Origin: Cladocopium goreaui
Taxonomy: Eukaryota > Sar > Dinophyceae > Suessiales > Symbiodiniaceae
Assembly: GCA_947184155.2 (NCBI GenBank)
Contig: CAMXCT020006647.1
Coordinates: 186,001-250,000, forward strand
Direction of reading: 5' to 3'
DNA: 64,000 nucleotides
A program made the position numbers and the translations under genes. How positions within the stretch are numbered: the first letter of the stretch is position 1; the number at the start of each line of letters is the position of its first letter. Below, one piece after another: positions 19,796 to 38,686 of the stretch. The notes beneath the pieces are model-generated. The model saw nothing but the letters and a program-made list of their open reading frames with translations, was not told where the DNA came from and ran no database searches.

Positions 19796-19803
19796 TAGGG
19801 CTC

Positions 19804-19824: not shown

Positions 19825-19902
19825 GTACCTGCGTGCTGGTAGCCGGGCCGTCTGAGCAATTGATTGAGGACGCAAAGGACCAATCAGCTCATCATCGCAA
19901 AG

Positions 19903-22900: not shown

Positions 22901-24366
22901 CGAAGCCTAAAGCTACTCCCAAGGAGAAGGCAGCGCCCAAGGCGAAGGCCAAGGCCGATGCAGCTCCAGTTCTACCATCACCTCAGCCTAAACAGCATGC
23001 AAAAGGAAAAGGAAAAGGTCAAGGGAAAGGGAAGGACCGATCAAACGGCCGAAGTACCAGCCCCAGATCCAAGAAGAAGATCCCATGCCATTTCCATTTC
23101 ATCAAGAAAGCATGCAGAAAAGGCAAGGATTGTGAATACAGTCACGACCAAAAGGTATTTGATGCGAACAAGAATGCAAAAGGCAACGGTCGGAAGCCAG
23201 GAACTCCAAGAAGTCAGTCTCCGGCAAACAAGACCAAGAAGATTGATGAACCATGCTGGCATTGGGCTAAGGGCAAGTGTCGGTATGGAGACAAATGCAA
23301 CAAACGCCACGATCCTCATCTATTCAACACTGCTCCAAACACTGAAGCACCAAGCTCAAAGGCTACTCCTGCACTTATCCATGATTGGAGTGATGATGAA
23401 GGGACGTTCCATAAGGTTGCATCAAACGTGATCAAGAAGAAGATCAGATTTGATGAGTCTAAAACTCAAGTTCAAACTTACGTGAAGAAGGACTTCGTGA
23501 AGTGCAGCCGGAAATCCCAAACCATCCCCAAAGGTCATGGTAAAGTTGGCAAGCCCACTGATCAGATAAGGAAAGATGAGCAATGGTCTTATTCATGCAG
23601 GTTAGCTTCGAGCCGAGGGAAAGCAATGGCTATTCTGATCGATGAGAAGGGTGAACACAGTGACATTGATGAAGTCCTAATCATAGTCGGCCCTAGCATG
23701 GACATCCTGATCAGACTCGACGTCGAGGACGGTGAGGTGTCCAGGGAAGTATTTGTGGAAAACTATGTTCAGCATATTGAAGGTCGATATGGTAAAAGGG
23801 GCAACACAATGTGTATCACTGTTCCTGTTGAAGAGAGAGATAAGAGATTCATATTGGATTCTGGAAGTGGCCATGATCTCATTTCATCCACACGGATAAG
23901 TAGAATGGATCTCCCAACATACGATGACAAGGTCGTCAACTTCCATACAGCAAATGGGGTAACGTGTTCGACCAAACGTTCAAGCATCAAGTTCGAGGCA
24001 TTTAGCGAACCAGCAGAAGCTCACATCTTGGAGGACACACCCTCCGTGCTCTCCATGGGAAAGCGATGCGTTGATCTTGGTTATTCTTTTGTATGGCCGA
24101 CCGGAAGAACTCCATTCATGTTGGATCCAAATGGCAACTTCATCGAGATGACTGTTAAAGACTATATTCCCTATGTGAGCGTCGATCAAGAAAAGTTCAA
24201 GTTGAAATCATCTTGTGTAGAGAAGATCATGGCAATTCTTGATGATGGATGCTCAACATCGGAAGGTGAAGGTCTTTGGTCATTGATGGAGAAAGTGGGG
24301 ATGAACTTGAAGATCTTTCCGACTCCGTTGGACGATCCAATGTTAAATCACCCAAGAGATCAATGA
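19903..24366 (+). CDS. ORF1: Gag with coiled coil, CCCH fingers and protease
   Basis: Predicted 1487 residues from the first ATG (MQGGSGDSRTT); the frame opens after TGA at 19861. Residues about 125-640 are a long charged coiled coil, unusual for a Copia Gag. About 680-715 is Pro/Gly-rich. About 750-965 is an all-helical Gag-like block. About 985-1055 is Lys/Ala/Pro-rich. Two CCCH fingers follow: CHFHFIKKACRKGKDCEYSH (near 1061) and CWHWAKGKCRYGDKCNKRH (near 1117). They replace the usual CCHC knuckle and should bind RNA. Near 1319, LDSGSGHDLIS is the active-site loop of a retropepsin-type aspartic protease (DSG). The ORF would give the particle protein plus the protease that cuts it. It ends at TGA 24364-24366, overlapping ORF2 by ATGA. 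Confidence 0.85.
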   Translation: MQGGSGDSRTTQFTFNENAAMPVEEVNQSSPGDTADSGGIRSTRTTQSGWQVTSNRRRISTQSTPRSSRNSARSDVVRQGHRPSRGRTTPRDRSTRAVTDRIGERTGDSRVKRRSTDTSVASEPIAMIEELRAQCQSLRNQLNNMEAYAASRDQLIHDIEIRFTEYLREHNQNVFDEVNALNHRLSCSANEVAEYQAELMVASQEDEGATIRIQDLERRGALMEHGARRIHQRGMEIQEEYKDEVHHLQGLLGNTEARLQQLHQTNVLTTDIANRLYNEGQEMQNDFQNSIMEYRNRSEMASSSSNQLEVISQQQSIAVHELSERNQLLSEALVQSRKQAELYESSIDEITRESRKKVFEANQAKLESDLKHRNTEHDTVKRIASYRNQEAEAISHLRLESQASANLIARAEHYEELYANEQKMNCELKDEIKLQNTKLRRSLTQGSTTDGRGPEEMLVEDLRNQAKIAQIRVQDLDHEVHECLQENLLLKERLAEVADVGASSLTNAEVRTLRSELESERKLKLASGVQQYERSCMFMGEIQDRDEKIGIKNSEIVDMKRHLDELRKSLKDSETSMARINPDTLPYSAGIPNSDLASRLVIDKLENDVSEANCENAILKSWVSQIDKELTYETNVAHSYRGHALPPQQPQHSQSSKRIADLLKEVDNKIAGGTEREYYKPPSGWGGPPDPDGPPDPFGPNGPGPPPEPPGLPSVRGSQRDSADDVSTAAYTAEEVPRMSRREADKVYVSPWPKQQNLGVWQSDLIKSVVLSANDGDKAAWEAWLQPAIRPNPDIELLNDSGGQRYQSIDAKLSIALSNVIAQAGDVARHVAIKLRLRTQSHSRRGTYVMGREILALILEHFRTPGQRETSFTMEHIVSMKYLGDSNLEVFYEKWMEMVSNMMPDDVPPDDWLRDALYKKIRNSSLMMFDIKQYESWMEGDQRRNYRYLLDVIERHISRIREDKHVAAREKYARDFAGGGKPSAPAPNPTAAAPDANPKAKPKATPKEKAAPKAKAKADAAPVLPSPQPKQHAKGKGKGQGKGKDRSNGRSTSPRSKKKIPCHFHFIKKACRKGKDCEYSHDQKVFDANKNAKGNGRKPGTPRSQSPANKTKKIDEPCWHWAKGKCRYGDKCNKRHDPHLFNTAPNTEAPSSKATPALIHDWSDDEGTFHKVASNVIKKKIRFDESKTQVQTYVKKDFVKCSRKSQTIPKGHGKVGKPTDQIRKDEQWSYSCRLASSRGKAMAILIDEKGEHSDIDEVLIIVGPSMDILIRLDVEDGEVSREVFVENYVQHIEGRYGKRGNTMCITVPVEERDKRFILDSGSGHDLISSTRISRMDLPTYDDKVVNFHTANGVTCSTKRSSIKFEAFSEPAEAHILEDTPSVLSMGKRCVDLGYSFVWPTGRTPFMLDPNGNFIEMTVKDYIPYVSVDQEKFKLKSSCVEKIMAILDDGCSTSEGEGLWSLMEKVGMNLKIFPTPLDDPMLNHPRDQ

Positions 24367-26129
24367 AGAAACGTAAGAAAGCTAAGGTAAGAGATGATCA
24401 ACATGAAGTGGCTGTTGGAAGTGATGCAGGTGATGCTGAGGAAATGTCATGCTATGCTGACGAGTATGCCGAGTTTGAGGACGACGGATACGATCCCAGC
24501 ATCGCACCTGATGACATCCATGAAGATCATCCAATTGAAGTTGAAGAAATTCCTGAAGATGGAGGAGGTGAAGACGACGATGATGTCATTGATGTTGATG
24601 AGGAAGATGGAGGAGTCCGATTGAGTAAGAGGGGAACTTTGAAGAATGAAGCACGATCGAAGGTTCACCTTCTAACTCATCGCTATAAGAACCCTTACTG
24701 TGAGTCTTGCGTGCGTGCCAAGATGAAGCACAGGAAAACGTTCAGAGGTGCATTTCAGCGTAAGCTCACGAAGTTTGGGGACCTGATCACATTCGACTAC
24801 GTTGACAACCGTCGTATTGCTGAACAGGACTATGGCGACGACAAAACCATCTTTGTCATCAGGGATAGATATACAGGAATGCTTCAGTCTTATCCTTCTG
24901 CCAGAAAGGACACAGACGCCGTTATACGGGCGGTCAAACAGTTCATGGGCCGTCGTAAGATTCGAGAAGCATATTCCGATGATGCCCCACAGTTCGACAA
25001 GGCAATGAAGATCCTAAAGATCCCAATGGATACTTCTTTGGCCGGAAAGACCAAGCACAACTCGCTCGCAGAGAGAACTAACCAATTCGTCCTCGTGGCA
25101 ACAACAACCTGTCTACTTGAGGCAGGAATTCCACCATGCTTTTGGATGTATGCCATCAGATGCGTGAGCCATTTGCTCAACATCGAGCCCAACGACGATG
25201 AGGTAAGTTCTTGGTGCAAACTTCATGGAGAAGAATTCAAAGGGAAGATGATACCCTTCGGTGCCCTCGTGTACTTCAAGCCCAGTGGTTCACGTGAACG
25301 AGAACAACAACACAAGTTTGACCCTATGGGAATCCCTGGAGTGTTCGCCGGATACTCCATTGGCCCCGGGCTTCATTGGTCGAGGAAGTACAGGGTATGG
25401 GCACTATGTGATTGGAGCAAGCAGAACTTGGCTTATGATGCGGAGAAGCCCATTGCAAAGCTGAGGACTCCACACTATACCGAAAGGGTCGAGCTAAAGG
25501 AACCCCTTGAATTCCCATGCAAGTTAGAGTATGAAAGGATCAATGTTTCCATTGAAGGATTGAAAGTGAAAGATCGTCTTGAAGGAAACCCAGAAATTCT
25601 ACCGCCACCTCCACCGGATGATGATGATGATGGTGGAGATGATGACGATGGTCATGGTGGTGGTGGTGTACCTTCGTCGAAGGTCCCACGGGAACCAACT
25701 GATGGAGAGTTGGAAGCTGAAAGGCACTTTGATGCAATATCGGAAAGATTGGGACCACCAGGTATCGATAAGCCAGCACATCCAGATCTTCATATCCCTG
25801 AAGGAGGACCTGAACATTACTCCGTTGGAAAGGGTGGAGATGGGGTCGTATACCTGAATGACGATGGTGAATGGGTGAAACTCAATGCTCGCGGCCATCC
25901 ATATCGTATTGATGAACGTGGTTTTCGCAGAATATCAACTACTCCAAGGCCTTCAAAGTATACCCCTGACGAGTGGAGAAAGATGTCACCGACTGTCAGA
26001 AAAGGGATTGCCAAGGCCGAAGAGAAGAAGCTTGAAGCAGAAAGGAGAAGAAGAAGAGTGATGCGAAAATCAAGGAAAGTGAGGAGCGAGCAAAGAGAAA
26101 AGAAGAAAAGAAGAAAGAGAAAGAAGTAA
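24363..26129 (+). CDS. ORF2: Copia-type integrase
   Basis: 588 residues if started at the ATG inside the ATGA overlap (MKKRKKAKVRDD). The same frame is open back to 24270, so a -1 frameshift from ORF1 is also possible. Residues 25-90 are very acidic. At about 102-116, HLLTHRYKNPYCESC is the HHCC zinc-binding motif before the core. The catalytic triad reads D145 (TFDYVD), D206 (YSDDAPQF) and E237 (NSLAERTNQ), a D-x60-D-x30-E spacing. HNSLAER resembles the QNGVAER motif common in Copia integrases. The C-terminus is Asp/Gly-rich, then strongly Lys/Arg-rich. It inserts element cDNA into host DNA. ORF3 follows in the -1 frame with no stop in the region of overlap (26036-26129). Confidence 0.85.
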   Translation: MKKRKKAKVRDDQHEVAVGSDAGDAEEMSCYADEYAEFEDDGYDPSIAPDDIHEDHPIEVEEIPEDGGGEDDDDVIDVDEEDGGVRLSKRGTLKNEARSKVHLLTHRYKNPYCESCVRAKMKHRKTFRGAFQRKLTKFGDLITFDYVDNRRIAEQDYGDDKTIFVIRDRYTGMLQSYPSARKDTDAVIRAVKQFMGRRKIREAYSDDAPQFDKAMKILKIPMDTSLAGKTKHNSLAERTNQFVLVATTTCLLEAGIPPCFWMYAIRCVSHLLNIEPNDDEVSSWCKLHGEEFKGKMIPFGALVYFKPSGSREREQQHKFDPMGIPGVFAGYSIGPGLHWSRKYRVWALCDWSKQNLAYDAEKPIAKLRTPHYTERVELKEPLEFPCKLEYERINVSIEGLKVKDRLEGNPEILPPPPPDDDDDGGDDDDGHGGGGVPSSKVPREPTDGELEAERHFDAISERLGPPGIDKPAHPDLHIPEGGPEHYSVGKGGDGVVYLNDDGEWVKLNARGHPYRIDERGFRRISTTPRPSKYTPDEWRKMSPTVRKGIAKAEEKKLEAERRRRRVMRKSRKVRSEQREKKKRRKRKK

Positions 26130-26185
26130 AGAAAGCCAAATCCTCCAAGAAAGACGACAAAGACGATCACGTCTCAGGAGTGGCC

Positions 26186-29100
26186 ATGTCCCAAGACTAC
26201 ATCCGAAGAGGCAAGGTTTTTCAATATGGAAAAGGGTCCGTTTCTCCCGTCGGGAGAGGGGTCTCTGCCTCTGCTCCATGTTATTCAGACCTGTCGGATA
26301 CTGACGTACCGGATGATGATGACTTCTTGATGGAGTGGGATGAATGGTCTGAGATCGAGAAGGGCAAGGGACCGAAAGCCACTTGGAACAACGACAAAGT
26401 GTATGACTTCAACCAGGGGAAGGTGGTGGCTGCTGCGACATTGCACAACACCAACGAAGTACCCCAAGACGCTCGTGGCCTCAGTGATGTTTTCCTTCCA
26501 TTTCCATGCATGCCATGCATTAATCATTGTGATGATCATCGAGAAAAGCTGACTTCAAATGGTGATGGAATCAATATCAATAAGATGTTCAACACTGCAG
26601 TGGCAAGGCCTGTTGGTCGTAAGGAAATGATGGAAAACGATGATGCACGTAAAGCTATGAGGAAGGAATGGTTGGGTCAACATGCTGCTGGAGTCTATGA
26701 TTTCAGTGTCGTTAGAGAATATGATGACGTTGTTCGTGAAGCAAAGGCAAACAAGACAGAGGTTCACATGGCCAGAGTACATGGTATCTGTGTTGAGAAA
26801 AACTATCAGTTGCCTGCAGGAAGTCCCAGTAGAAAATTCAAAGGCCGAGGTGTCTTGCTTGGTAACCAGGTGAAGAACCAATTCTGGGAGGCTGCCTTCT
26901 TCCAGGACTTGGGCAATTCTCCAGCTACTTTTGAGGCATCGAGATGGGCTGATTTCTATGGGTGTCTTCCAGGCCACAATGTAAAACTTGCCGACGCCAT
27001 TCAGGCATACATTCAAGCAAAACTAACCGGACCACCATGTTGGGTTGAGCTACCTGAAGATGCATGGCCAGACGATGTCGATATTCGAAAGTTCCGTAGA
27101 CCAGTTGTAAGATTGGTTAAAGCTTTGTATGGTCACCCCGATTCGGGAACAATGTGGGAACAACACTGTGATCAGAAAGTTCGTGAACTCGACTTCGTTC
27201 CTGTTGGAGAAGAATGGCCCTCAATGTATTTTCACAAGAAACTGAAGTTACTTCTTGTCATCTATGTAGACGACTTAAAGCTGGCAGGACCGGAAGAGAA
27301 CCTGACTAAGGGTTGGGAGATGCTTCGATCAAAACTCAACATCGAGCCCGAGACTGACTTAGGACTCTACCTTGGTTGTATTTTGAGAAAGGGATCTACC
27401 AAACTTCATGATGGAACCCCGGTTTCAACTATGACCTACGACATGGAAGGATTGTTGAAGCTGTCAGTTGAGAAGTACTTGGACATTGTTGGAAAAGATA
27501 CGAAGTTGAAACAAGTATCTACTCCAAGTCTACCTGAAGAAACAAAGAAACACAAGTCTAGAGCACCATGTCCCGGGAACCCCAAGAACAAGAAGGTATG
27601 TCCATGGTGTACTCATGAATTTGATCCGGACGCTCCATTGTTTTATGAACAAGGAACCCAAGGGGAAGACGTCTCGCCTGGGGAGTCTGAGAGAGGTGCA
27701 TTAGCGCCACACGCTGCTAGCGTGTTGATGAAGCTGCTGTACGCGGCGAGGATTGCTCGTTTTGATCTGCTTCGTTCCATCAATTCCCTGGCCAGGAATG
27801 TAACAAAGTGGACCATTGATGACGATGCAAAGTTGTATCACTTAATGTGCTACGTGAATTCCAGCCTATCTAAAAGAATGACCGGATGGGTTGGGGACAA
27901 CTTCAATGAATTGACATTGTCTTTATTTGCTGATGCTGATTTTGCAGGGTGTGCCCAGTCTTTGAGATCAACTTCAGGGTCTCATATGCATATCCAGGGT
28001 AACCACACTCGGTTTCCTTTGTCCGGGGGCAGCAAACGGCAAGGATGCGTAAGCCATTCGACGCCTGAGGCCGAAATCGTTGCAGCCGATGTCACCCTCC
28101 GTACTATGGGCTTGCCCGCAATGAGCATCTGGGAAACGCTGACGGGAAAGTCGCCCAAATTATTGTTTCATGATGACAATCAGGGCATGATCGGTGTAGT
28201 CAGGTCGGGTCGTAACCCCACTATGCGGCATCTTGAGAGGACCCATGGCATAGCCATCACTTCCCTCCATGAACATTTTACTCGGGAAAACTACGTACTC
28301 ATGTACGAGGTGACCTCGAAAATGGCCGCTGACATTCACACCAAAGGTTTCAAGAATCCGTTAGCATGGAAAAGAGCATGTATGCTCATCAACCTGTTGG
28401 ACCCTGGTGACATCGGTACGAAAGATCTGCTCGATATGGTCTCACCTACCACGGATGTTGATACCACTGTCCGACAAGTGTTTCAAACCAAAACTCAAGA
28501 TGTTCCAAATTTTCCGTATACCGAAATACCTATTCTACCACCTGAGGTGTATCAGAAGGGTCTTTCTGGTAAAGAACAAGTACAACAACTACCTGGTATG
28601 GATCCCATATTGGTTGTTAAGACGCCAACTTTCTTTAGAAAGCGACCATCTGGTGTATCATTGCCTCATGATTGTTTGAGAAGTACCTGGATACTATCTC
28701 ATGGCAAATGGATCAAGGTTGAGGATCGAGTTCCACCCGTTCAACAACAAGACCGTTTTGATCAATGGGTAGAACGAGCTTGTTTCCAATACCATCCGTG
28801 TCAATTTAGTATATCACCGTCGGTGATTACTAGGCAATCAGCTGGTGTTGTCTCACCGGGACACCTGGCGTCAACAGCACGACAAGGGCTCCATGCTGCT
28901 GCGGTGCCGACTCGTCAGACTCACGTCCTGAAGTATCCTCAGTTAACTGTGGGAGTAGGTCAACTATTTTGTCATCAATCCCATGGAAATGAACCCACAA
29001 CCATTCATGCAGCTCCGTGTGGTACTGCTCGGGTGATCAACACGCTCCTTCGAGTTGTTCATGGGGGGAGTTCTGGATGGGGTAGTCTTCCAATGGGATT

Positions 29101-32100
29101 TCCTCCGACGGGGGACCCCGATGATGATCCATATCCCACAGAAAACAAAGATCCCAATCGACAACGAATTGTATTCGCTGGTGGTGATGTGATTGCTGGT
29201 AGGGTGTCAAAAGACAAAGCCTATAACCCATCAACATCATCAAGAAAGGGAAAGAAAATATCCAAAAATGAACGTGATCAAGATGAATGGATATGGAAGG
29301 ATGAAACAACATTGATGAGAGTGCACAAAATACCAAGAAGAAAGATGTTTACCCCCAAAGAGGCTGACTTTCTGCCATGTAAGCTGAGACGGTTTAGAGA
29401 TGAACGGGAAACCAACCAAGTGTTTCAGTCAAGTGGAAGATTGATCCACGATTCATGGAGATTGGTGGGGAATAACATCGAGAAGACCAATAAGAGAAAT
29501 GAATTTTGGACAGGGACCACTACCTTCAAGATCATATCCAATGCAGACATCAAAGATGTGATGGACAGCGGGTCTGACGTGGAGGACAGGGCATCGTGCC
29601 AGGACACTGTGGTCACCTGTATCCTTGATGGGAACATGAAAATCATTCCGTTGGATGACATGTTTATAGCCCATCATTACAAGTTGAAGCATGAGACCAG
29701 AAAACAAAATGATTGGGATATTCAGATGAATCTACATCGAAAGAATGGGAAGATTCTGACGTATCACTTCAAGCAGTCCTATGCTGATTTTCTCGGGAAA
29801 ATACTCAATGACGTTACCATATCTCTCAACGTCTATGAGATGAAGGATGATATCCCATGCTTGCTCCTCATGTGTGCTGAAACGCAAAGCATCATTACAA
29901 AGATTCACAAACAGAGTCGGTTTAAGATGATGCATGTGGTCACGATTACCGAAGATGACAACCTCATGTCCAACTACGGAAGGGCAAAATGGAGACGTTG
30001 CATCAGGGGTCCTAGTGACTGCGTGTTCTTTGCGGGACCTTGCACCGGTGGTTCACCGTGGAATCGGTTAAACAAAAATGTGAGTGAGGTCACAGCGCAC
30101 AACATCAGAATGAAAGCACTTCTATATTGGGAGCTATGGGAAGAGTTCACATTGTGTCTGCAACGTGTACATGTTTTGCATGCAATGGCATTGTTGGAAC
30201 TACCTCGGGGATGCGACTATTGGAATGATGAGAGAATGAAGTTTCTGATCAATGGGACCCAATCGACTGTGCATGACTTTGATGGATGCATGTATGGTTT
30301 GAAGTCACAATTCAAAGACGTTGGGACCGCAATCAAGAAACCGTGGAGGATCGTATCATGGGGGGTTGAGTTCTTTGACTTGCATGTGAAATGTGATGGC
30401 TCACACACTCACGGTCAATGTGCGGGCAGAGAAACACGTGCAACACAATTATATACCGAGAAGATTGTCAGAGCTATCCTTCGAGGTGTCACCAATCAAA
30501 TGTTGATTAACAACGTTTATGGGAAGAGATTTCGACCAAAGGTTATGGAAGAGGAAGATTACTATAAGTCGAAGTCGTGTGCATGTGTCATCATAAATGA
30601 CTATGAATGCAACACCAACGTGAAGACCATCAATGAACAACTATTCATTAACTTCATCACCCAACGAGGCGGTGTGAAGGTGAAGCTGAGGTTGTATCCA
30701 CGTCGTGGATCAATATTAGCGGATCCGGATCCCGTTAGAGGTGGATTGAAGGTGAAGTCGGGCTGTTACCTGCGTCGTTGGTGCGCCTTGACGGATCCGG
30801 ATTCCGCATACCTCACTTCGGTCTTCGCAATGGCTGGGACTGACCTTGTGATCCCTTCAGCGGCCAAAGGCATTAGTTTGCTGAAATCAACTTTGTCCCT
30901 CATCCAGGAGAAGAAACAAGAGCACAACCTTCCTGCTCCATTCTCAACCTATGAGGAGGCAAACTTCAGGGGTTACAAGGACAAGGACCTCGACGAATGG
31001 TTGGATCGAGTGAAGATTTCTCCTCCTGTCGTTGTGGCCTTAGCTTTTGTCATGGATAGAAGTGGCAGGGCGTTCGTGACTCATGCAATCAGGTTGCTCA
31101 TGAAAATGTTATCAAAAGTGACCAATGAGAATGAGTTGAAGATGTCTGCCATCAGCTTCATTGACAAAGGGGCCCGACTATCGAAATTGGTGGAAGGAGC
31201 CGCTAGAAATCCAGATGAGAAAAGCATCATGCAGATGTTGTGCACCTTCGAGTGTGCAATCAGAATAGATGAACTATGGGATACCCTCAAAGACCACTAT
31301 ACTGGGCAAAATAGTATGATCAACAAGGAGATCACAGTCAGAGATTTGCGCGACAAGATCGCAAATACTAGCCCAGCAAACCTCGGATCATTGAACCAGA
31401 CGTATCCTCCGTATGGGAGTCCTTGCTACCAAATCCGAAAGAGGACAAACTTCGAGGAAATCGCACGTCGAAAATGGGAAAAGTGGTCGTTTGAAGTGAT
31501 GCGGAGAGAAGAACCTGAACCATCTGAAGTTGAAAACCGCATCCAATATCTGGTCAACATCATGTACGAGGAGAGCTACAGCCTCGGCTATGCACTCCGA
31601 CGTCACAATGCCAGAGCGACCAGCAGCCAGGGTAAAACCATCATCGTTCAGAATGTCCTGGAAGACTGGATGTCAATGAGTTATGATCTCAGCTTGGAAC
31701 GGACGGCAGCTGTTGTCCATTTGCAAACCATTCTCATGATCTCCAAAATGCTACATGAGTGGATGACAAAATTGGAAAACTTCAGATCAATGTCACACCT
31801 GAGCGGGATCATCAAGGCTGATCTGGTCAGAATGAAACAGGCCATTGACCTCCGCGACGACCTATGGGAGTTGGGGGGCTACAACATTGAGAGGGCCGAC
31901 CAGGGCATGTTTGAGGAGGTGGAGAAACGGAACAGGACATTTTCCTGTATCCGCGACTATGTGACGACCACTGCCACCACACAGATGGGCCAAGGAGCCA
32001 CAGAGGTCTCCCACATTGATGGCTGGGACATCCCGCTGATGCCGAGAGACGGCAGAAACCCTCCAAGTCAACCGGATCATCCAGGTTGGGATCCTTCACC

Positions 32101-33901
32101 TATCAGAATGATGAATGACAAGCAACAGAGGGAAGCCGATGCACAGCGGGCACAACAGCAACAACAACAGACTGGGCCTAGTAGTTCCACCGCCGGTGGA
32201 CACGATGGTTACAGCTCTGCAGCTGGGAGTGCACCACCACCAAAAGCTCCACCATCGAAGGCAAGGCCATCTACACCTCCTGCAAGAAAGGACTGGGTGA
32301 TTCCTCGGGTACCGAATGGATATCTTTTCAGAACTTCATCAATGCCCGATCAAAGGAACTCCGAGTTCATCACCTCAGCATGGATGGACGAGCATAATCA
32401 CTTTCTTCTATCAATCGTCCAAGGCCCAGCAGCTCAAGCTGCCAGCACTTCAGGTTCAGCACCTTGGGCACAATACTTGAGGAGAGTGACCGCATATGCT
32501 TGCATGGTCTTCGGAATCTGCAACCCGGCAGTCGTGACGGAGGACACCGCGTCTACCATCTCTGAGAAAGACTGGTTGAGGTGCTACAGCCACGTTGTCC
32601 GCAAGTACATGCTGACGCGGACAGGGTGCTATCTGTCGACTGCAGGAATGCTCATGATGCTAGGGCATCACGACGTGAACGTTGCCAACCAATCTGACCT
32701 TGGCCGCATCAAGAAGATGATCACCAACCCACTTGCTTGCAGGATCATCGATGCACCAAGCGGTCCAAGAGATCATGACATGTTGGCAGGTGATTTCAGG
32801 GCTGGAACAACCATCCTCATCACCGACCTGATGTTCCGCGTGGGGACCCAAAGTGGGACGCATGGCATCCAAATGGGATTAGCTGACATGGGATGGGAAA
32901 GTGTCGAGGTGTTCAAGATCCATGATTCTGAAGCAGAACGACCCCTTCAGCAATTCCTCGACACCCTTGACAAGGTCAAGCAGTACCTCAGCACGGATAC
33001 CGTCGACGATGGTTTGATAACTGTGCACCTTTGGTTGTCATTGCAGTTCCTACATGCACAAAAACCACCTCATTGTGTCATGCTTGAAAACGACTTCAAG
33101 AATCAGTTTGTCAAGGGGGTGCTCGATCTTGATCAAGTTACGTCCAGACCCCTGATGGTCGCCATCAACAATGACTCCATGTTCAACGGAGTGGACTCTG
33201 TTACGTCCAGGATCGCAGAGGAGCTGATTGAGAAGATGAGGCTCCAAGGGATCTTGGTAACATCGGATCAGAGGATGTGGCGGTCAATGTACTCGCAATT
33301 CGGAAAACAGTATTCGATTTTGAGTACAACCAAGAAGGGGACTTTGGGAAAGACGGCAATTTGGTCTGTCATCGAGAAGAATCTATTTCGCCAAAGGGTC
33401 TTCCTCATGTGTGCCACGAATAGGGAACATGTATCAGTTCTCAATGAGGGAGCGTTCAAACCTGACGAATCGGGCATCATCGCCAAAGTTCTGGAGGATA
33501 TGACCGGACCAACTGAGGCGTTCAAGATCGCAGGTGGCGAAATGACCCCTGGTGACTATGCAAATGACGACACCACAATCTTCCAGCGAGGCCCTGGAAC
33601 CGCCGTGAACAGATTCACCAAAGACAAAAGGTTCAAGACCAGTTGGGTCGAACCGGTGGTCGGCACCCATGAGCTGGAACCAGTGGTTTCCGATCGGTGC
33701 ATGTGGTTCACCATTGACAAGGAGAATGAAGACATCCTGTGCGGAAGCTGTAGAGGCGCAGAGACGATGGATGAGGTCGAGACGTGCCAGTCGAGACCAA
33801 CCCATTGCATTAATTGCTCCGCCAACACCCAGGACCATTACAAGCGTTCATCCCCACATTGGAGGCCAGGAAGTCCGTACTACTCCTTGCAGCTAGGTTG
33901 A
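26186..33901 (+). CDS. ORF3: reverse transcriptase-RNase H with a long unknown extension
   Basis: 2571 residues from the first ATG; the frame is open from 26036, so fusion to ORF2 by a -1 frameshift is possible. Residues about 130-460 are a Copia reverse transcriptase: LVKALYGHPDSG, then the YVDD active site at 360-363. RNase H follows, with acidic residues in ADADFAG (about 583-585), STPEAE (E628), HDDNQG (D663) and AADIHTK (D716). After about 745 no known retroelement domain is evident. Residues about 1285-1292 read PCTGGSPW; then FDGCMYGL (1365) and CDGSHTHGQCAG (1403), a Cys/His-rich block that looks metal-binding. A 24-residue tandem duplication lies at 1495-1542. The last about 1020 residues look globular but unassigned, with a Gln/Pro/Ser linker near 1980-2035 and a C-terminal Cys cluster (CGSC ... 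CINC, about 2519-2548). Confidence 0.85.
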   Translation: MSQDYIRRGKVFQYGKGSVSPVGRGVSASAPCYSDLSDTDVPDDDDFLMEWDEWSEIEKGKGPKATWNNDKVYDFNQGKVVAAATLHNTNEVPQDARGLSDVFLPFPCMPCINHCDDHREKLTSNGDGININKMFNTAVARPVGRKEMMENDDARKAMRKEWLGQHAAGVYDFSVVREYDDVVREAKANKTEVHMARVHGICVEKNYQLPAGSPSRKFKGRGVLLGNQVKNQFWEAAFFQDLGNSPATFEASRWADFYGCLPGHNVKLADAIQAYIQAKLTGPPCWVELPEDAWPDDVDIRKFRRPVVRLVKALYGHPDSGTMWEQHCDQKVRELDFVPVGEEWPSMYFHKKLKLLLVIYVDDLKLAGPEENLTKGWEMLRSKLNIEPETDLGLYLGCILRKGSTKLHDGTPVSTMTYDMEGLLKLSVEKYLDIVGKDTKLKQVSTPSLPEETKKHKSRAPCPGNPKNKKVCPWCTHEFDPDAPLFYEQGTQGEDVSPGESERGALAPHAASVLMKLLYAARIARFDLLRSINSLARNVTKWTIDDDAKLYHLMCYVNSSLSKRMTGWVGDNFNELTLSLFADADFAGCAQSLRSTSGSHMHIQGNHTRFPLSGGSKRQGCVSHSTPEAEIVAADVTLRTMGLPAMSIWETLTGKSPKLLFHDDNQGMIGVVRSGRNPTMRHLERTHGIAITSLHEHFTRENYVLMYEVTSKMAADIHTKGFKNPLAWKRACMLINLLDPGDIGTKDLLDMVSPTTDVDTTVRQVFQTKTQDVPNFPYTEIPILPPEVYQKGLSGKEQVQQLPGMDPILVVKTPTFFRKRPSGVSLPHDCLRSTWILSHGKWIKVEDRVPPVQQQDRFDQWVERACFQYHPCQFSISPSVITRQSAGVVSPGHLASTARQGLHAAAVPTRQTHVLKYPQLTVGVGQLFCHQSHGNEPTTIHAAPCGTARVINTLLRVVHGGSSGWGSLPMGFPPTGDPDDDPYPTENKDPNRQRIVFAGGDVIAGRVSKDKAYNPSTSSRKGKKISKNERDQDEWIWKDETTLMRVHKIPRRKMFTPKEADFLPCKLRRFRDERETNQVFQSSGRLIHDSWRLVGNNIEKTNKRNEFWTGTTTFKIISNADIKDVMDSGSDVEDRASCQDTVVTCILDGNMKIIPLDDMFIAHHYKLKHETRKQNDWDIQMNLHRKNGKILTYHFKQSYADFLGKILNDVTISLNVYEMKDDIPCLLLMCAETQSIITKIHKQSRFKMMHVVTITEDDNLMSNYGRAKWRRCIRGPSDCVFFAGPCTGGSPWNRLNKNVSEVTAHNIRMKALLYWELWEEFTLCLQRVHVLHAMALLELPRGCDYWNDERMKFLINGTQSTVHDFDGCMYGLKSQFKDVGTAIKKPWRIVSWGVEFFDLHVKCDGSHTHGQCAGRETRATQLYTEKIVRAILRGVTNQMLINNVYGKRFRPKVMEEEDYYKSKSCACVIINDYECNTNVKTINEQLFINFITQRGGVKVKLRLYPRRGSILADPDPVRGGLKVKSGCYLRRWCALTDPDSAYLTSVFAMAGTDLVIPSAAKGISLLKSTLSLIQEKKQEHNLPAPFSTYEEANFRGYKDKDLDEWLDRVKISPPVVVALAFVMDRSGRAFVTHAIRLLMKMLSKVTNENELKMSAISFIDKGARLSKLVEGAARNPDEKSIMQMLCTFECAIRIDELWDTLKDHYTGQNSMINKEITVRDLRDKIANTSPANLGSLNQTYPPYGSPCYQIRKRTNFEEIARRKWEKWSFEVMRREEPEPSEVENRIQYLVNIMYEESYSLGYALRRHNARATSSQGKTIIVQNVLEDWMSMSYDLSLERTAAVVHLQTILMISKMLHEWMTKLENFRSMSHLSGIIKADLVRMKQAIDLRDDLWELGGYNIERADQGMFEEVEKRNRTFSCIRDYVTTTATTQMGQGATEVSHIDGWDIPLMPRDGRNPPSQPDHPGWDPSPIRMMNDKQQREADAQRAQQQQQQTGPSSSTAGGHDGYSSAAGSAPPPKAPPSKARPSTPPARKDWVIPRVPNGYLFRTSSMPDQRNSEFITSAWMDEHNHFLLSIVQGPAAQAASTSGSAPWAQYLRRVTAYACMVFGICNPAVVTEDTASTISEKDWLRCYSHVVRKYMLTRTGCYLSTAGMLMMLGHHDVNVANQSDLGRIKKMITNPLACRIIDAPSGPRDHDMLAGDFRAGTTILITDLMFRVGTQSGTHGIQMGLADMGWESVEVFKIHDSEAERPLQQFLDTLDKVKQYLSTDTVDDGLITVHLWLSLQFLHAQKPPHCVMLENDFKNQFVKGVLDLDQVTSRPLMVAINNDSMFNGVDSVTSRIAEELIEKMRLQGILVTSDQRMWRSMYSQFGKQYSILSTTKKGTLGKTAIWSVIEKNLFRQRVFLMCATNREHVSVLNEGAFKPDESGIIAKVLEDMTGPTEAFKIAGGEMTPGDYANDDTTIFQRGPGTAVNRFTKDKRFKTSWVEPVVGTHELEPVVSDRCMWFTIDKENEDILCGSCRGAETMDEVETCQSRPTHCINCSANTQDHYKRSSPHWRPGSPYYSLQLG
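30668..30811 (+). repeat. 72-bp in-frame tandem duplication inside ORF3
   Basis: GGVKVKLRLYPRRGSILADPD and a diverged second copy (GGLKVKSGCYLRRWCALTDPD) are directly adjacent. The phase is kept (24 codons). It falls between the Cys/His-rich block and a segment starting MAGTDLVIPSAAKG that looks like the beginning of an independent protein, so it may mark a fusion junction. Confidence 0.8.
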
Positions 33902-36900
33902 AGGTTGCATTCGAGGATCTTGGTGTTGACATTGTTGACATCAATCAAGGATTCCAAACATGGCTCACATTTACTGCGTCTTCGTTGATTTCAAATGCAT
34001 CGTTGGCGTATGGGGAGCACTTGATGAAATCTCTATCTCACATGGGAGGAGTCAGAATTTCGAAGAGGCAAGCTCTGGAAATTTTCCGGAACGGACGCGG
34101 CAAGCAATTCAGCATATATCGAGAAAGAGTTTTCGATGATGTTGCAAAGAAGTGGCTTTTGATCTATAGAGTCACAAAGGATTGCGGAAATGTCGCATAC
34201 AAAGACTTCTTCGAGAAGGTTGCCGTTCCCGAGGTGAAGGAGAGGAACGAGATTTTTGGATTCTCCCGTGCATCTGCCGAGAAAACTGGAGATATCATCG
34301 AGTTCTGGCTTGGTGTCTTGGACGTGGCCAATATGGCCAAGGGAGTCGTAGATGTTTTCAATGCTAGTGTTGATCCAGCTGAGTATCTCAATGGATTGGA
34401 AAAGGCACTGGCTCAATTTACATCGACCTCCCGAACCTCGAGCACCATCAATGACAAGAGACGGGGATCCTTCGACTGCACACTGCAAACTGCAGAAGCC
34501 GAAAGGGTCATGAAGCTCATCCACGCAATCCCCGGATATGATTCGCTGGCCAATTTCTGCTGCCTCACGGACTGGGAGAAGGATCAGGTATTCTCTCATT
34601 ATCGCAGGAAGAACAACATCACAGGGGGTGACGCCAGCATGGGCACTGATGCCGATGCCAAGCCAGGTGACGAGTCGTCGGCTCACCCTGGGGAGGAGGA
34701 AGCTGATGAGCCAGCGAACGACCCCACCGATGTGGTCAGGGACTCAGAGAATTCCGGGAAACAACAACTTTTGGATGCGTTGGGAAAACTATTCACCGTC
34801 TCTGAGGATGTCAACGTGTGCTTGTATTGTGGTAGCACCCAACATGGCCATCTTGAATGTGAACATGAGAAGAGAGATGAAGTCAGAAAAGTGCTAAAGG
34901 CCGTCCGAGCGTCGCTCGAGGCTGATAGTCCAACATCTGATGACGTCGATATGGAGCCTCCTGAGCACAAGAAGGACGGTTCAGGTGCTACTGATGGGTC
35001 GGGGCAAACGGATGAACCCACAAAATCGAGGTTTGGTGAACACCAATGGTACGACAGCATCAGAACTATGTCTGAAGTTGGTGACCTCGATGAGTATGGC
35101 AGATTCTGCATAGAAGGACGTGATGTGACAAAGCTAGGACCACAGAACATTGTTGACCTCAACGAAGTGGTCAGAGACGCTATTGTCAGAGGAGGAGGTG
35201 ACTCTTGGTCAGTGCCAGACTTCATGGCAAGCTACTCTGATAACAACATCAGGAAGCCCTTCTACAAGAGAGTCGAGGCGCCGCAAGATGGTTTCTTGAA
35301 AATCATCCCGACCACGGGGGTCCATTTCTTCAACTGCTCTTACTTTGGCGGTGTAGAATATGCGGCCAACTACCGATTCGAGACTGGCAACCGACTCAAT
35401 ACCTACGAGGACAAGGTGAGTACATCACTAAACAGGATCCTGCGGCACATCGTGGGGAAGGTATCAGAACAACAGAGTTTGTCATGTGATGACGCCGGCT
35501 GGGTGCCCATCGAGGAGGTGCTCAAATGTGAGTCCATCTGGAGGCACGAGTACGCACGCTGGCCACATGTATTCCTTGCTCCAAAAGGAAGAGCAAATGA
35601 TCAGAGTGCATGGAATGTCGATGAGGCAAACTACCGCATGACGTTGCTCTTCAAGATTATGTTCCACTGTGCCCGGTATGGACGTCGTGTTCGTGAACAA
35701 GTGTTGGCATTTGGTATCAACAAGGACATCGAGCGCACCAGCCTGACGTGCATTGACAACAAAGTCGATGCGAACACGAACATTCCTGATGAAGGTCTAC
35801 TGCTCTACCCTGTGGCGGTCCGTGCTCCTACGGGGCACAAGGAAGGATCTTCGAGGGACGACGTCTCATTGCTGTCCTCATTACTTTCACATCCAATCGC
35901 GCCCAACACCATTTTGTCGTTACCGGTTTGTTTCCACATCACCAAGAAGACCAACCTTCGAAGCATTTGGAGGCAGGGATTAATTCCAGGAGGTCTTGGA
36001 GAAGGTCATCGGATGTTCACGTTCTTCAACCCGTACGTGCCATGGGATCACAGATCATGGACTATCACGAAGAGCGTTGATACGCGAAAGGGGGACTACA
36101 TTTGCTTGTTCATCCCGACCGAGACCTTGATGGTGGAATATGGCGGTCGACTGACTGACTCGGGACAGATCGTCTCACCAAAGATCATCCCGTTCTCGGC
36201 AATCAAAGGAGGATGGATTCAGGACCCAAAAGACCAAAACAATAAGACATGGCTCCGGTTGTTCGTCCCGTCGGGCGACGACCAGGTAGTCCGGTCTGGA
36301 ACTGTCAAATCAAGAACGGTAGCCACCAAGGAGTCCATCTTGAGGGTTGCAAGTCAATGCATCGACGCCGAAGATCAACCGTTTGACGAAACCGCCATGG
36401 ATGCCATGAACATCGTCAACCAATTCAAGAACGACCTCATCAAGCCTGGCGGACAAGAACAATACCTGGCCCGCATCAAGCTGATTGACTACATAGTCGA
36501 ACGCAAAAGGGTGCAAACATCAGGTTGCCGCCATTGTCCTCACTGTCTCAATGAGACGCCGACAAAACTAGCAGTGTGTCTAGTTTGCTGGACGGAACTG
36601 GAAAGTTGTGGAATCCGTCCCTATCGGCTACAAGCTCCTGAAGACGATGAAGATGAGGCCACGAAGAAAGAGATCGATGAAGAAGTTCGTCGACAAGAAG
36701 AATCGTTGTTCAAGGATACGGTCCATCAAGCACAAGAAAACGTATCCGAATCCAACGACTATGGCTTCAATCCCGACGAGGTCGACTACAACGAAGGCGA
36801 TGATGAAGAAATGGATCAGGAGGAGGAAGCCCAACAGGAAGACGACGAAATCGTTGAAGAAGACGAAGATGAAATGGAAGTCGAACCTGAAGATGAATCC

Positions 36901-37323
36901 TCTTCCAAACTTCCAGCATGGACCAAGAACCTCGAGAGCGGCAGCAAGGGTATGCCAGAAGACGGACTTATCAACAATGATGTCTCCGAGGCCGCGGCTC
37001 ACTTGTATGACAATGCTGTCATGTCAAAGGTCATCACAATGTTCAGGCTCTACTACAAACAGAGAGTCACTCTGACCCCAGAGGAGTACTATGAGATGAT
37101 GACGGAAACCAAGCGAGTCCGGCTGGACCTGGACGACTTCTGTCCTTATACAGGAGAAGACCAGGATGGCAACCTCAAGCGACCGACGGAGCTGGAATTG
37201 GATGAACTCTTTCAGCAGAAAGGGAAGAGGAATTCATGGTCAGAAGGAGAGAAGTTATACTCAGGGCGACCAAGAAACATGATGATGCCTGTCATCAAGA
37301 CTTTAGAGATCTATGAAAGATGA
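33814..37323 (+). CDS. ORF4: CCHC knuckle plus Tpt1/KptA-like domain
   Basis: The frame opens after TAA at 33811; the first ATG is at 34024 (MKSLSHMGG), and the preceding 70 codons could be reached by a -1 frameshift from ORF3. Numbering from 33814 (1169 codons): C336-x2-C339-x4-H344-x4-C349 is an exact retroviral CCHC knuckle. At 535-575, LNRILRH then DDAGWVPIEEVL matches the N-terminal lobe of RNA 2'-phosphotransferase (Tpt1/KptA: L..LLRH ... GW..I..LL). At 633-645 INKDIERTSL resembles its N-D-K-x-R-F segment, and at 707-735 FHITKKTNLRSIWRQGLIPG then GHRMF resembles its YHGT ... GL ... RxH segment. R544, H545, R641 and R733 could be the R-H-R-R catalytic set. A Cys-rich ribbon (CRHCPHC ... 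CLVC) lies at 905-925, an acidic stretch at 940-1030. It ends in an ATGA overlap with ORF5. Confidence 0.75.
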   Translation: MLRQHPGPLQAFIPTLEARKSVLLLAARLKVAFEDLGVDIVDINQGFQTWLTFTASSLISNASLAYGEHLMKSLSHMGGVRISKRQALEIFRNGRGKQFSIYRERVFDDVAKKWLLIYRVTKDCGNVAYKDFFEKVAVPEVKERNEIFGFSRASAEKTGDIIEFWLGVLDVANMAKGVVDVFNASVDPAEYLNGLEKALAQFTSTSRTSSTINDKRRGSFDCTLQTAEAERVMKLIHAIPGYDSLANFCCLTDWEKDQVFSHYRRKNNITGGDASMGTDADAKPGDESSAHPGEEEADEPANDPTDVVRDSENSGKQQLLDALGKLFTVSEDVNVCLYCGSTQHGHLECEHEKRDEVRKVLKAVRASLEADSPTSDDVDMEPPEHKKDGSGATDGSGQTDEPTKSRFGEHQWYDSIRTMSEVGDLDEYGRFCIEGRDVTKLGPQNIVDLNEVVRDAIVRGGGDSWSVPDFMASYSDNNIRKPFYKRVEAPQDGFLKIIPTTGVHFFNCSYFGGVEYAANYRFETGNRLNTYEDKVSTSLNRILRHIVGKVSEQQSLSCDDAGWVPIEEVLKCESIWRHEYARWPHVFLAPKGRANDQSAWNVDEANYRMTLLFKIMFHCARYGRRVREQVLAFGINKDIERTSLTCIDNKVDANTNIPDEGLLLYPVAVRAPTGHKEGSSRDDVSLLSSLLSHPIAPNTILSLPVCFHITKKTNLRSIWRQGLIPGGLGEGHRMFTFFNPYVPWDHRSWTITKSVDTRKGDYICLFIPTETLMVEYGGRLTDSGQIVSPKIIPFSAIKGGWIQDPKDQNNKTWLRLFVPSGDDQVVRSGTVKSRTVATKESILRVASQCIDAEDQPFDETAMDAMNIVNQFKNDLIKPGGQEQYLARIKLIDYIVERKRVQTSGCRHCPHCLNETPTKLAVCLVCWTELESCGIRPYRLQAPEDDEDEATKKEIDEEVRRQEESLFKDTVHQAQENVSESNDYGFNPDEVDYNEGDDEEMDQEEEAQQEDDEIVEEDEDEMEVEPEDESSSKLPAWTKNLESGSKGMPEDGLINNDVSEAAAHLYDNAVMSKVITMFRLYYKQRVTLTPEEYYEMMTETKRVRLDLDDFCPYTGEDQDGNLKRPTELELDELFQQKGKRNSWSEGEKLYSGRPRNMMMPVIKTLEIYER

Positions 37324-38006
37324 TGGAATTTCTGGTACGCGCTGGGTACACTCCTGAGTCATTAGGCTTTCTCATGCCAATGAACCGAATGCAGGCTGAT
37401 GCCCAAGGGAAACAGGAGATGCGAATAACCATCAGCAATTTCCTTCGACGACTGCTCAAAGGAACCTTTCCGGAGCACGAGTCATACACCTTCTTTCGCT
37501 CCGGGAGCCACGGCTTCCCCAACTGCATCGAACTCCCAGCCTTCTCGGTATATCTGAGCCTGAGGGAGAAAGAACAGAGAGTAGAGCTGCTCTTTGCAGC
37601 CCAACAATGTGGCATTCCTTTACCTCAAAACTTTGTCAGCAAGATGGCTTATGCTATTCAGCTGGCCGAGGCCGAGGCGCAGAGGGGAAAGACCGAAATG
37701 AAAGCGAAGATGGCTCCAACCCTTGGCGACGAAGTGGTGAGTGAAGTATTCAAAGCGGTTGGACATACTGCAGCTTCTAAGTTTGCTAAACCAACTGCGC
37801 AACCTTCACAGACACCTGAAGGCACTGGTTCAGCATCATCCTCATCGGCTAGTGCACCAAAGGGCAAGGCTATGCCGAAATCCCATGAACCATCAAAGGC
37901 ACCGCCTGCAAAGCCTTCATCGCCGAAAGCTGCTCCGAAACGTGCGGCAGGATGGGAGAGAACTCCAACAGCACCTCAATGGAAGAAAGTCCGCCGTGAG
38001 CAGTAA
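37320..38006 (+). CDS. ORF5: small protein with basic Pro/Ser tail
   Basis: 228 residues, starting MMEFLVRAGYTPES at the ATG of an exact ATGA overlap with ORF4. An in-frame TGA at 37314, two codons upstream, leaves almost no room for a frameshift, so reinitiation is the likeliest route. The first about 150 residues look helical and globular (LRRLLKGTFPEHESYTFF; QRVELLFAAQQCGIPLP). The rest is Ala/Pro/Ser/Lys-rich and ends PQWKKVRREQ, which could bind nucleic acid or act as a nuclear signal. No family recognised. Confidence 0.7.
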   Translation: MMEFLVRAGYTPESLGFLMPMNRMQADAQGKQEMRITISNFLRRLLKGTFPEHESYTFFRSGSHGFPNCIELPAFSVYLSLREKEQRVELLFAAQQCGIPLPQNFVSKMAYAIQLAEAEAQRGKTEMKAKMAPTLGDEVVSEVFKAVGHTAASKFAKPTAQPSQTPEGTGSASSSSASAPKGKAMPKSHEPSKAPPAKPSSPKAAPKRAAGWERTPTAPQWKKVRREQ

Positions 38007-38502
38007 ACCAATTACTTTGATCCGTAAAAATGATCACTGGAATATGAGATGTGTATCGTCTTTGTGAACAGATGATCAGGAAAGGATCAACTGAGTGGAC
38101 TCTGAGCGAGGCAGTAGACTAATTCGCTTAGGTTCAAGATTTTTGATATTCCCAATCTGCACGAATTCTGCACTGTGCACGTGAATTCGTTAGTTAGCAT
38201 TGTAAATCTTTAGTAGCGAAGCGATCCATTTCTCCCGACGGGTGAGTGGTATGCCTAGCCAACGTAGAAAAGTAGATGTTAGCTAGCAATAATTCGCGTT
38301 GTACAGCTTGATGACGCGCCGAAGCATCGACAGCCAGAGAGTAGGCGAACCCTGAACCATTATTCCCGACGGGTATGTGGGGAAGGGGGAGCCGAATGGC
38401 ACGTTTTATGTACAAAGGCGTAATTCAAGTAGCAGAAACCAATCTAATTCAAAGTTCCCTCTCTCGTGTCCGTGGTTCGAAGAATACCACGGGCATGGGG
38501 GG
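38007..38502 (+). other. 3' non-coding region of the retroelement
   Basis: About 500 bp between ORF5 and the right LTR. It carries two copies of the CCCGACGGG motif: TTTCTCCCGACGGGTGAGTGG at about 38229 and ATTCCCGACGGGTATGTGG at about 38362. No ORF of note. Confidence 0.6.
38491..38502 (+). other. Putative polypurine tract
   Basis: GGGCATGGGGGG directly precedes the proposed right LTR (TGTCAAAGGG). It is G-rich with one CAT interruption. The position is right for plus-strand priming and supports the LTR boundary. Confidence 0.55.
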
Positions 38503-38686
38503 TGTCAAAGGGAACACAGCGGTAGCACATGTAACAATGAACAATGTTACGGCCATCATGGCTCAAGCGCCCGCAAGAGGAAAACGGCTGCGCGCTGACT
38601 GCAATGCCTGAGTGAGGTTCGGTAATAACTAGCACACAAGGTACTACCATTCGACTACATCCAGAACAAGGATTCATTTGTTCACA
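38503..38686 (+). repeat. Right (3') LTR, 184 bp
   Basis: Starts TGTCAAAGGGAAC and ends CAGAACAAGGATTCATTTG then TTCACA. It aligns to the left LTR but is 21 bp shorter with many substitutions. TGT...ACA ends fit Copia LTRs. The right flank is the interior of a CTGGTTGGTGG-family MITE. Confidence 0.7.
38551..38567 (+). promoter_or_regulatory. Spliced-leader-like relic in right LTR
   Basis: GGCCATCATGGCTCAAG matches the dinoflagellate spliced-leader end GCCATTTTGGCTCAAG at 14 of 16 bases. It lies where the left LTR has its own TTGGCTCAAG, so the feature belongs to the LTR and is not a chance hit in one copy. Confidence 0.55.

What the first reader, a model, noticed from the sequence alone, without database searches (positions are those of the whole stretch)
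35440..36015. Tpt1/KptA-like RNA 2'-phosphotransferase domain inside a Copia retrotransposon ORF
ORF4 has LNRILRH followed by DDAGWVPIEEVL, then INKDIERTSL, then FHITKKTNLRSIWRQGLIPG and GHRMF. That is the order of conserved segments in Tpt1/KptA. The R-H dyad and two later arginines are in place to form the known R-H-R-R active site. The spacing between lobes is longer than in cellular enzymes, so this would be a divergent family. I know of no Copia element described with such an enzyme. It could repair RNA ends, modify RNA 5' phosphates with ADP-ribose, or process a tRNA primer.
Basis: partly seen in the sequence, partly recalled or inferred. Interest (0 to 1): 0.88.

Follow-up and report, generated by a model that had tools for sequence, protein, structure and literature searches.

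The report
RNA-repair enzyme inside giant dinoflagellate retrotransposons
A large "copy-and-paste" jumping gene from what looks like a dinoflagellate carries, inside its own polyprotein, a relative of the cellular enzyme Tpt1 that removes 2'-phosphates from RNA, and a second, unrelated class of jumping gene in the same genome carries one too, which hints at an RNA-repair step that such elements may have recruited more than once.

Summary
Confirmed. ORF4 (33814-37323) holds a Tpt1/KptA-type domain at about 35401-36288: Pfam PTS_2-RNA E 2e-5 (25.1 bits, cut-off 26), profile-profile E 1.8e-10; from a weak AlphaFold model the first 14 PDB matches are Tpt1/KptA. The host is a Copia-type LTR retrotransposon of about 19 kb (19579-38686). 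The window copy is frame-broken; a 97.7%-identical copy has one 6048-aa ORF and identical 199-bp LTRs. The family is large: 997 candidates, 108 of 108 scored at 96-100% identity. R544, H545 and R733 are kept in 41/42, 41/42 and 43/43 rows; dN/dS of 0.03-0.16 in 7 of 10 pairs shows purifying selection. DIRS-type elements in the same genome carry a more canonical Tpt1 with R-H-R-R, so two or more captures are likely. I found no report of Tpt1 in a retroelement in the papers searched. Likely role: NAD+-dependent removal of 2'-phosphate from RNA that the element reverse-transcribes or primes from. A half-tRNA-like primer site makes primer healing testable, but no matching tRNA was found.

The parts
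19579..19783 (+). 5' LTR (TG...CA, 205 bp), 72.6% identical to the 3' LTR of the sister copy C5816
19784..19798 (+). primer binding site GGTTATCAGCCGTAG directly after the LTR; its complement reads as a tRNA anticodon arm ending at nucleotide 40
   Evidence: exact in 5 places in the sequence held, behind three kinds of LTR; half-tRNA rule from PMC1181622 passages
19864..24366 (+). gag-like ORF with two CCCH zinc fingers (23086-23115, 23254-23280) and an aspartic protease motif (23851-23877)
   Evidence: Pfam zf-CCCH and Asp_protease_2 (E 0.0044, under cut-off) on the sister copy
24270..26129 (+). integrase ORF, D-D-E motifs at 24786-24806, 24969-24995, 25053-25079 (read by eye; no Pfam integrase hit in the sister copy)
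26036..33901 (+). Copia reverse transcriptase (RVT_2, YVDD at 27263-27289), RNase H motifs (27932-28084, by eye), then about 1,900 aa of unknown sequence
33814..37323 (+). ORF4, the frame that holds the Tpt1-like domain; corresponds to part of the 6048-aa ORF of the sister copy
35401..36288 (+). Tpt1/KptA-like RNA 2'-phosphotransferase domain (limits approximate)
35443..35448 (+). R544-H545, the R-H dyad
   Evidence: 41 of 42 rows each
35692..35694 (+). R627, best candidate for the third arginine (K-x-R-F position)
   Evidence: 43 of 43 rows; alignment
35734..35736 (+).
   Evidence: 43 of 43 rows
35935..35937 (+). H708 of FHIT, at the place of HGT in cellular Tpt1
   Evidence: 42 of 43 rows
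36010..36012 (+). R733, fourth residue of the tetrad
   Evidence: 43 of 43 rows
37320..38006 (+). C-terminal piece of the polyprotein in another frame
38497..38502 (+). polypurine tract GGGGGG before the 3' LTR
38503..38686 (+). 3' LTR, poorly alike to the window's own 5' LTR; no target-site duplication seen, so a mosaic or decayed copy

Best explanation
SHOWN: the segment is a Tpt1/KptA-type domain built into the polyprotein of a high-copy Copia-type LTR retrotransposon (one 6048-aa ORF in a sister copy), conserved in its key residues and under purifying selection; DIRS-type elements of the same genome carry a more canonical version. INFERRED: after translation the domain is released or stays near the reverse transcriptase and uses NAD+ to remove 2'-phosphates from RNA. 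Such phosphates arise when RNA is cut by metal-independent nucleases, which leave 2',3'-cyclic ends, and is then opened or rejoined by a plant/fungal-type RNA ligase; they would be expected to hinder cDNA synthesis. The element thereby keeps its own RNA, or the tRNA fragment it uses as a primer, fit for reverse transcription. Odds of the steps: Tpt1 homology 0.95; catalytic in the window family 0.7; substrate is RNA that the element copies or primes from 0.45.
For: Homology; fold, from a weak model. Key residues in the window family: R544 41/42, H545 41/42, R627 43/43, H708 42/43, R733 43/43, the window itself counted; in the DIRS type R-H in 12 of 12 rows and K-x-R-F, HGT/S and R-R in 11 of 11 rows that reach them. 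Selection: of 10 pairs, 7 gave a ratio: 0.143 (window/C5816), 0.065, 0.162, 0.063, 0.029, 0.094, 0.031; 3 were saturated. Same ORF as RT: one 6048-aa frame, one 3924-aa frame, and RT, Tpt1 and tyrosine recombinase on one protein in 3 of 8 public DIRS-type proteins (P0065, P0066, P0070). [quoted passage not shown] alanine in place of two Tpt1 active-site arginines slows step 2 by 710- and 210-fold (PMC6333775, passages).
Against: No activity, expression or substrate was tested. The third arginine of the window family is not settled. The C1050-type family has lost the histidine and C1335/C2768 have it displaced, so not every copy need be catalytic (though alanine for that histidine cost only threefold in step 2; PMC6333775). 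DIRS elements are not known to prime from tRNA (recalled), which argues against a role limited to tRNA priming. The tRNA predicted by the primer site was not found with the two exact patterns that were answered. Pfam named no partner ligase, kinase or 2H phosphoesterase in the polyproteins scanned.
Confidence: 0.45

Rival explanations
1. Counter-defence: the enzyme undoes host damage, repairing host tRNAs or element RNA cut by host RNases, as proposed for KptA of large phages and RNA viruses, rather than serving reverse transcription itself.
For: KptA domains are reported in polyproteins of some positive-strand RNA viruses and in jumbo phages, with RNA repair proposed (PMC9503650, passages). 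Presence in two unrelated element classes fits a general pressure from the host.
Against: Pfam named no tRNA ligase or other repair domain in the polyproteins scanned; I know of no RNase defence described for this host (recalled, not searched). Hard to separate from the best explanation by sequence.
Confidence: 0.25
2. RNA end capping: the domain ADP-ribosylates 5'-phosphate ends of element RNA or cDNA, protecting them, instead of removing 2'-phosphates.
For: Tpt1 and TRPT1 modify the 5'-phosphate of RNA in vitro (PMC9458441, passages).
Against: The residues used for 2'-phosphate transfer are kept in full in the DIRS type; no hydrolase partner was recognised.
Confidence: 0.12
3. Catalytically dead relic used as an RNA-binding module.
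For: Histidine lost in the C1050-type family, which is nevertheless under purifying selection; long insertions and an unclear third arginine in the window family.
Against: R-H, H-x-T and R733 positions are nearly invariant in the window family and invariant in the DIRS type.
Confidence: 0.15
4. Chance similarity, or a host gene caught in one copy only.
For: The window copy alone scores just under the Pfam cut-off, and none of the 150 PF01885 matches scored is the window copy itself.
Against: 108 of 108 scored copies, the window's included, hold the whole 380-aa region at 96-100% identity; 23 of 60 relatives carry PF01885; profile and fold evidence.
Confidence: 0.02

Closest known systems
Cellular Tpt1/KptA/TRPT1 (RNA 2'-phosphotransferase, PF01885)
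   Same: Order of motifs (R-H, G-W, R-A-x-x-G-H, H-x-T, R), profile match, best structural matches.
   Different: Part of a retrotransposon polyprotein; long insertions; third arginine uncertain; path of 6.4-6.7 changes per column to the nearest cellular rows on the tree.
SymbioDIRS-Dnmt3 and SymbioLINE-Dnmt elements (PMC5890265; passages read)
   Same: Retroelements of a dinoflagellate with a captured nucleic-acid enzyme, reported as under purifying selection. My DIRS-type Tpt1 element C945 has similar parts (RT, RNase H and a DNMT-like remnant by eye, tyrosine recombinase).
   Different: The captured enzyme is a cytosine methyltransferase; the main text has no hit for 'phosphotransferase' or 'PTS' and says Copia elements there lack any DNMT. 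Supplementary files were not read.
Orchid Ty3/Gypsy elements with an AlkB-type m6A RNA demethylase (PMC9289625; passages read)
   Same: LTR retrotransposon with an acquired RNA-modifying enzyme, shown active in vitro.
   Different: Other superfamily, other chemistry, separate ORF, flowering plants.
KptA domains in polyproteins of RNA viruses, e.g. Beihai picorna-like virus (PMC9503650; passages read)
   Same: Tpt1/KptA built into the polyprotein of a replicating RNA element.
   Different: No reverse transcription; the main text has no hit for retrotransposon, retroelement or Copia.
Hemivirus-type Copia elements (Ty5, copia, 1731, Osser), which prime from half tRNAs (PMC1181622; passages read)
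   Same: Primer site directly after the LTR whose complement reads as an anticodon arm ending at nucleotide 40.
   Different: Here the predicted anticodon would be GAU and no such tRNA gene was found; the Tpt1 domain is extra.

Membership tests
Tpt1/KptA family (PF01885) | significant sequence-profile match | tested here: met
   E 2e-5, 25.1 bits; this is 0.9 bits under Pfam's curated cut-off for this copy, but 23 of 60 relatives carry PF01885 and profile-profile E is 1.8e-10
Tpt1/KptA family (PF01885) | R-H dyad in the N lobe | tested here: met
   R544 41/42, H545 41/42
Tpt1/KptA family (PF01885) | third active-site residue, Arg of K-x-R-F | tested here: inconclusive
   no K-x-R-F in the window family; R627 and R641 are both invariant; alignment favours R627
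Tpt1/KptA family (PF01885) | fourth active-site residue, Arg after the H-x-T helix | tested here: met
   R733 43/43, aligned
Tpt1/KptA family (PF01885) | winged-helix lobe plus ADP-ribosyltransferase lobe | tested here: inconclusive
Tpt1/KptA family (PF01885) | NAD+-dependent 2'-phosphotransferase activity | not testable with these tools
   needs an assay
Copia-type LTR retrotransposon | integrase upstream of an RVT_2 reverse transcriptase and RNase H | tested here: met
   RVT_2 E 4e-7, 30.3 bits and 4.7e-7, 30.1 bits in the sister copy, both just under the cut-off of 31.6; integrase and RNase H motifs by eye
Copia-type LTR retrotransposon | paired LTRs with TG...CA ends and short target-site duplication | tested here: met
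   sister copy LTRs 199 bp, 100% identical, its duplication blurred by a CATA repeat; C1335 and C2768 (other family) LTRs with 5-bp duplications GAATC and GTATT as I read them. The window copy itself has unlike LTRs and no duplication
Hemivirus (half-tRNA primed Copia) | primer site complementary to a host tRNA up to nucleotide 40 | tested here: inconclusive
   site exact in 5 places; no matching tRNA gene with two exact patterns; only 63 of 41,400 tRNA candidates were scored
DIRS-type elements (locus C945; C251, C2112, C2057 by likeness) | tyrosine recombinase instead of DDE integrase | tested here: met
   C945: XerC/XerD-like region, weak, E 0.03-0.07; the same region conserved in 5 of 8 public proteins; catalytic motifs by eye
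DIRS-type elements (locus C945; C251, C2112, C2057 by likeness) | split repeats A-coding-B-A-B | tested here: inconclusive
   73-78 bp identical repeats at both ends in 4 of 4 loci; full repeat layout not worked out

The most novel reading that the evidence does not exclude
The element-encoded Tpt1 is a primer-healing enzyme: Copia elements of this genome prime from a tRNA half cut in the anticodon arm, whose raw 3' end carries a 2'-phosphate or cyclic phosphate, and the Tpt1 domain, tethered to the reverse transcriptase, turns it into a usable 3'-OH. It would answer how half-tRNA primers get their 3'-OH, and would mean that retroelements recruited tRNA-splicing repair chemistry at least twice.
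Probability: 0.18. Interest if true: 0.92.

Novelty: new variant of a known kind. Interest (0 to 1): 0.74.

Why it matters
Captured enzymes in retroelements are considered rare (PMC9289625, abstract passage) and are telling: they hint at which host steps limit the element. An RNA 2'-phosphate eraser, in high copy number, under purifying selection and apparently captured more than once, would say that 2'-phosphorylated RNA is a real problem for reverse transcription in this host. It would give a direct assay for a question that I believe is open (recalled): how a half-tRNA primer gets its 3'-OH. It also adds a eukaryotic setting for Tpt1 beyond tRNA splicing.

Tried and rejected
Chance match: rejected by copy number, profile and fold. 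Single-copy gene capture: rejected. Decayed domain: rejected for the families by selection ratios, although the window copy itself is frame-broken, one pair (C2112/C251) has dS 1.66 near saturation, and the C1050 pairs rest on 1-3 nonsynonymous differences each. Stops do occur: 5 of 150 rows show one inside the match. Simple half-tRNA story: weakened, because the exact anticodon-arm pattern has no match and the one match with a T-arm-like continuation (C951) runs, as I read it, from the primer site into the reverse complement of an LTR end, so it is element sequence and not a tRNA. One origin of all retroelement Tpt1: the tree places the DIRS type among cellular rows and joins the two Copia groups only weakly (79/79, long branches); its own count says that one origin is not ruled out, so the number of captures is not settled. 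The class A loci were at first taken for Copia; no such primer site was found at up to 4 mismatches near their 5' ends, and C945 carries a tyrosine recombinase. Structure of DIRS protein P0071 without an alignment was useless (mean pLDDT 39.3). A viral-contig scan with A1 could not start. A search for Copia RVT_2 in the genome did not complete, so the share of Copia elements with Tpt1 is unknown. In the tree the rows P0042, C5598 and C1693 were left out. In one search, 18 of 60 relatives were dropped for covering too little of the region. The alignment behind the model used 32 of the 60 relatives. The full-text library lacks bioRxiv and PMC6573784, PMC1369817, PMC6182162 and PMC5776459; supplements could not be read. 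Searches behind 'no report found', judged by listings: 20 of 56 listed; 14 of 14; 20 of 29; 10 of 1,195; 8 of 8; 12 of 30.

Full report

THE HOST ELEMENT. The window copy spans 19579-38686: LTR, primer site, gag with CCCH fingers, protease motif, integrase, RVT_2 reverse transcriptase, RNase H, a long unknown stretch, the Tpt1 domain, a C-terminal part, polypurine tract, LTR. It is broken into several overlapping frames. A sister copy on contig C5816 is 97.7% identical over 18 kb, has one ORF of 6048 residues with the Tpt1 motif at residue 5190, and LTRs of 199 bp that are 100% identical, so recent transposition is likely. In the window copy the two LTRs are poorly alike and no target-site duplication is seen: a mosaic or decayed copy. 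In the whole genome the 380-aa region has 997 candidates; 108 were scored and 108 of 108, the window's included, match over full length at 96-100% with no internal stop.

NOT ONE FAMILY BUT SEVERAL. A PF01885 search of the genome gave 1496 candidates, 150 scored, all 150 over the cut-off, 5 with a stop inside; the window copy is not among them, as its score is lower. By score they fall into 3 at 174-180 bits (short open frames of 185-335 aa, cellular-like; one, L003, lies on the 7.4-Mb contig C1, probably bacterial), 22 at 92-101 bits, 3 at 61-64 bits and 122 at or under 54.5 bits. I opened 4 of the 22 and 6 of the 122. Of the 4 (C945, C251, C2112, C2057) I read C945 through: a reverse transcriptase and RNase H that Pfam does not recognise (motifs by eye), a DNMT-like remnant (by eye), Tpt1, and at the end a tyrosine recombinase. 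C2112 gave Tpt1 and no RT by Pfam. All 4 have 73-78 bp identical repeats at their ends and like Tpt1 domains. This is close to the make-up of the SymbioDIRS-Dnmt3 elements (PMC5890265, passages), whose authors also note that Pfam misses the DIRS reverse transcriptase. Of 8 public relatives, RT was found in 5, recombinase in 5, both together with Tpt1 in 3. Of the 6 opened low scorers, C1335 and C2768 have short LTRs (144 and 135 bp by BLAST), the same primer site and, as I read them, 5-bp target-site duplications; RVT_2 in C2768 scores 21.8 bits, E 1.6e-4, well under the cut-off. C1050, C1597, C1693 and C5598 are placed with them by their Tpt1 domain only.

ACTIVE SITE AND SELECTION. In the window family R544 and H545 are kept in 41 of 42 rows, R627, R641 and R733 in 43 of 43, H708 in 42 of 43, the window counted. 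In the DIRS type the full canonical set is kept: R-H in 12 of 12 rows, K-x-R-F, HGT/S and R-R in 11 of 11 rows that reach them. In C1335/C2768 the histidine is displaced, in the C1050 group it is lost. Nonsynonymous to synonymous ratios over the domain are 0.143, 0.065, 0.162, 0.063, 0.029, 0.094 and 0.031 for 7 of 10 pairs; 3 were saturated, and the C1050 pairs rest on 1-3 nonsynonymous differences. So the domain is kept for its function in several families. A tree of 19 rows makes each of the three retroelement groups one clade, sets the DIRS type among cellular rows with modest support, and joins the two Copia groups weakly with long branches; one origin is not ruled out. Two or more captures is the simplest reading, given two unrelated kinds of element; it is not proven.

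HOW IT MAY WORK. Tpt1 uses NAD+ to take a 2'-phosphate off RNA in two steps (PMC6333775, start of abstract and passages). A library protocol removes such a phosphate with Tpt1 at ligated junctions on the way to cDNA (PMC4005677, passages). That makes removal of 2'-phosphate from template or primer RNA the plainest reason for a reverse-transcribing element to carry the enzyme. A narrower version is suggested by the primer site: GGTTATCAGCCGTAG follows the LTR exactly in 5 places in the sequence then held, behind three kinds of LTR and with differing sequence after it. Its complement reads as an anticodon arm and ends where half-tRNA primers of hemiviruses end, nucleotide 40 (PMC1181622, passages). 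A half tRNA made by a metal-independent nuclease would have a blocked 3' end; some Tpt1 enzymes are reported to act on terminal 2' and 3' phosphates (title only, in the references of PMC9458441). Against this, no matching tRNA gene was found with two exact patterns (the tRNA survey scored only 63 of 41,400 candidates), and the DIRS class, not known to prime from tRNA (recalled), has the better conserved enzyme. I therefore hold the general version at 0.45 and the primer version at 0.18.

WHAT IS KNOWN. Retroelements with captured DNMT (PMC5890265) and with an RNA demethylase (PMC9289625) are in print, as are KptA domains in RNA-virus polyproteins (PMC9503650); for each I read passages. Six full-text searches, judged by listings that were cut short in four of them, and term look-ups in PMC5890265, PMC9503650, PMC9289625, PMC11453091 and PMC6431247 gave no report of Tpt1 in a retroelement. 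The library is partial, so this is not proof of novelty. I rate it a new variant of a known kind.

LIMITS. No expression or activity was tested. RVT_2 scores sit under Pfam's cut-off. Copy counts are lower bounds.

Noticed in passing
window 19579-19783 and 38503-38686; C5816 LTR (L037); DIRS-type repeat in L038/L011: LTRs and the DIRS repeat contain a stretch like the end of the dinoflagellate spliced leader (such as GCCATCATGGCTCAAG; leader recalled): 0 of 500 shuffles as good for the window 3' LTR, C5816 and C945, 8 of 500 for the window 5' LTR, but 52 and 212 of 500 for C1335 and C2768. Possibly relics of trans-splicing taken up during reverse transcription.
   Followed up: partly
L036 about 8460-8505: A second element with another LTR and the same 15-nt primer site lies downstream of the C5816 copy; whether it has a Tpt1 domain is unknown.
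   Followed up: no
own genome contig C1 (7.4 Mb), L003: Contig C1 holds 30 of the 40 tRNA matches listed and a free-standing KptA; it looks like a bacterial chromosome in the assembly.
   Followed up: no
L011:6179-9997: The DIRS-type Pol of C945 carries a DNMT-like remnant between RNase H and Tpt1 (by eye; no Pfam hit), so one element may have collected two nucleic-acid enzymes.
   Followed up: no
window 28100-33900: About 1,900 residues between RNase H and the Tpt1 part have no significant Pfam match and lie in the single open frame of the sister copy; function unknown.
   Followed up: no
L019-L026: A family with open frames near 4026 aa (C1050 group) keeps much of the Tpt1 domain but has lost the R-H histidine while under purifying selection (ratios 0.029-0.094, few changes); a change of chemistry or substrate is possible.
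   Followed up: partly
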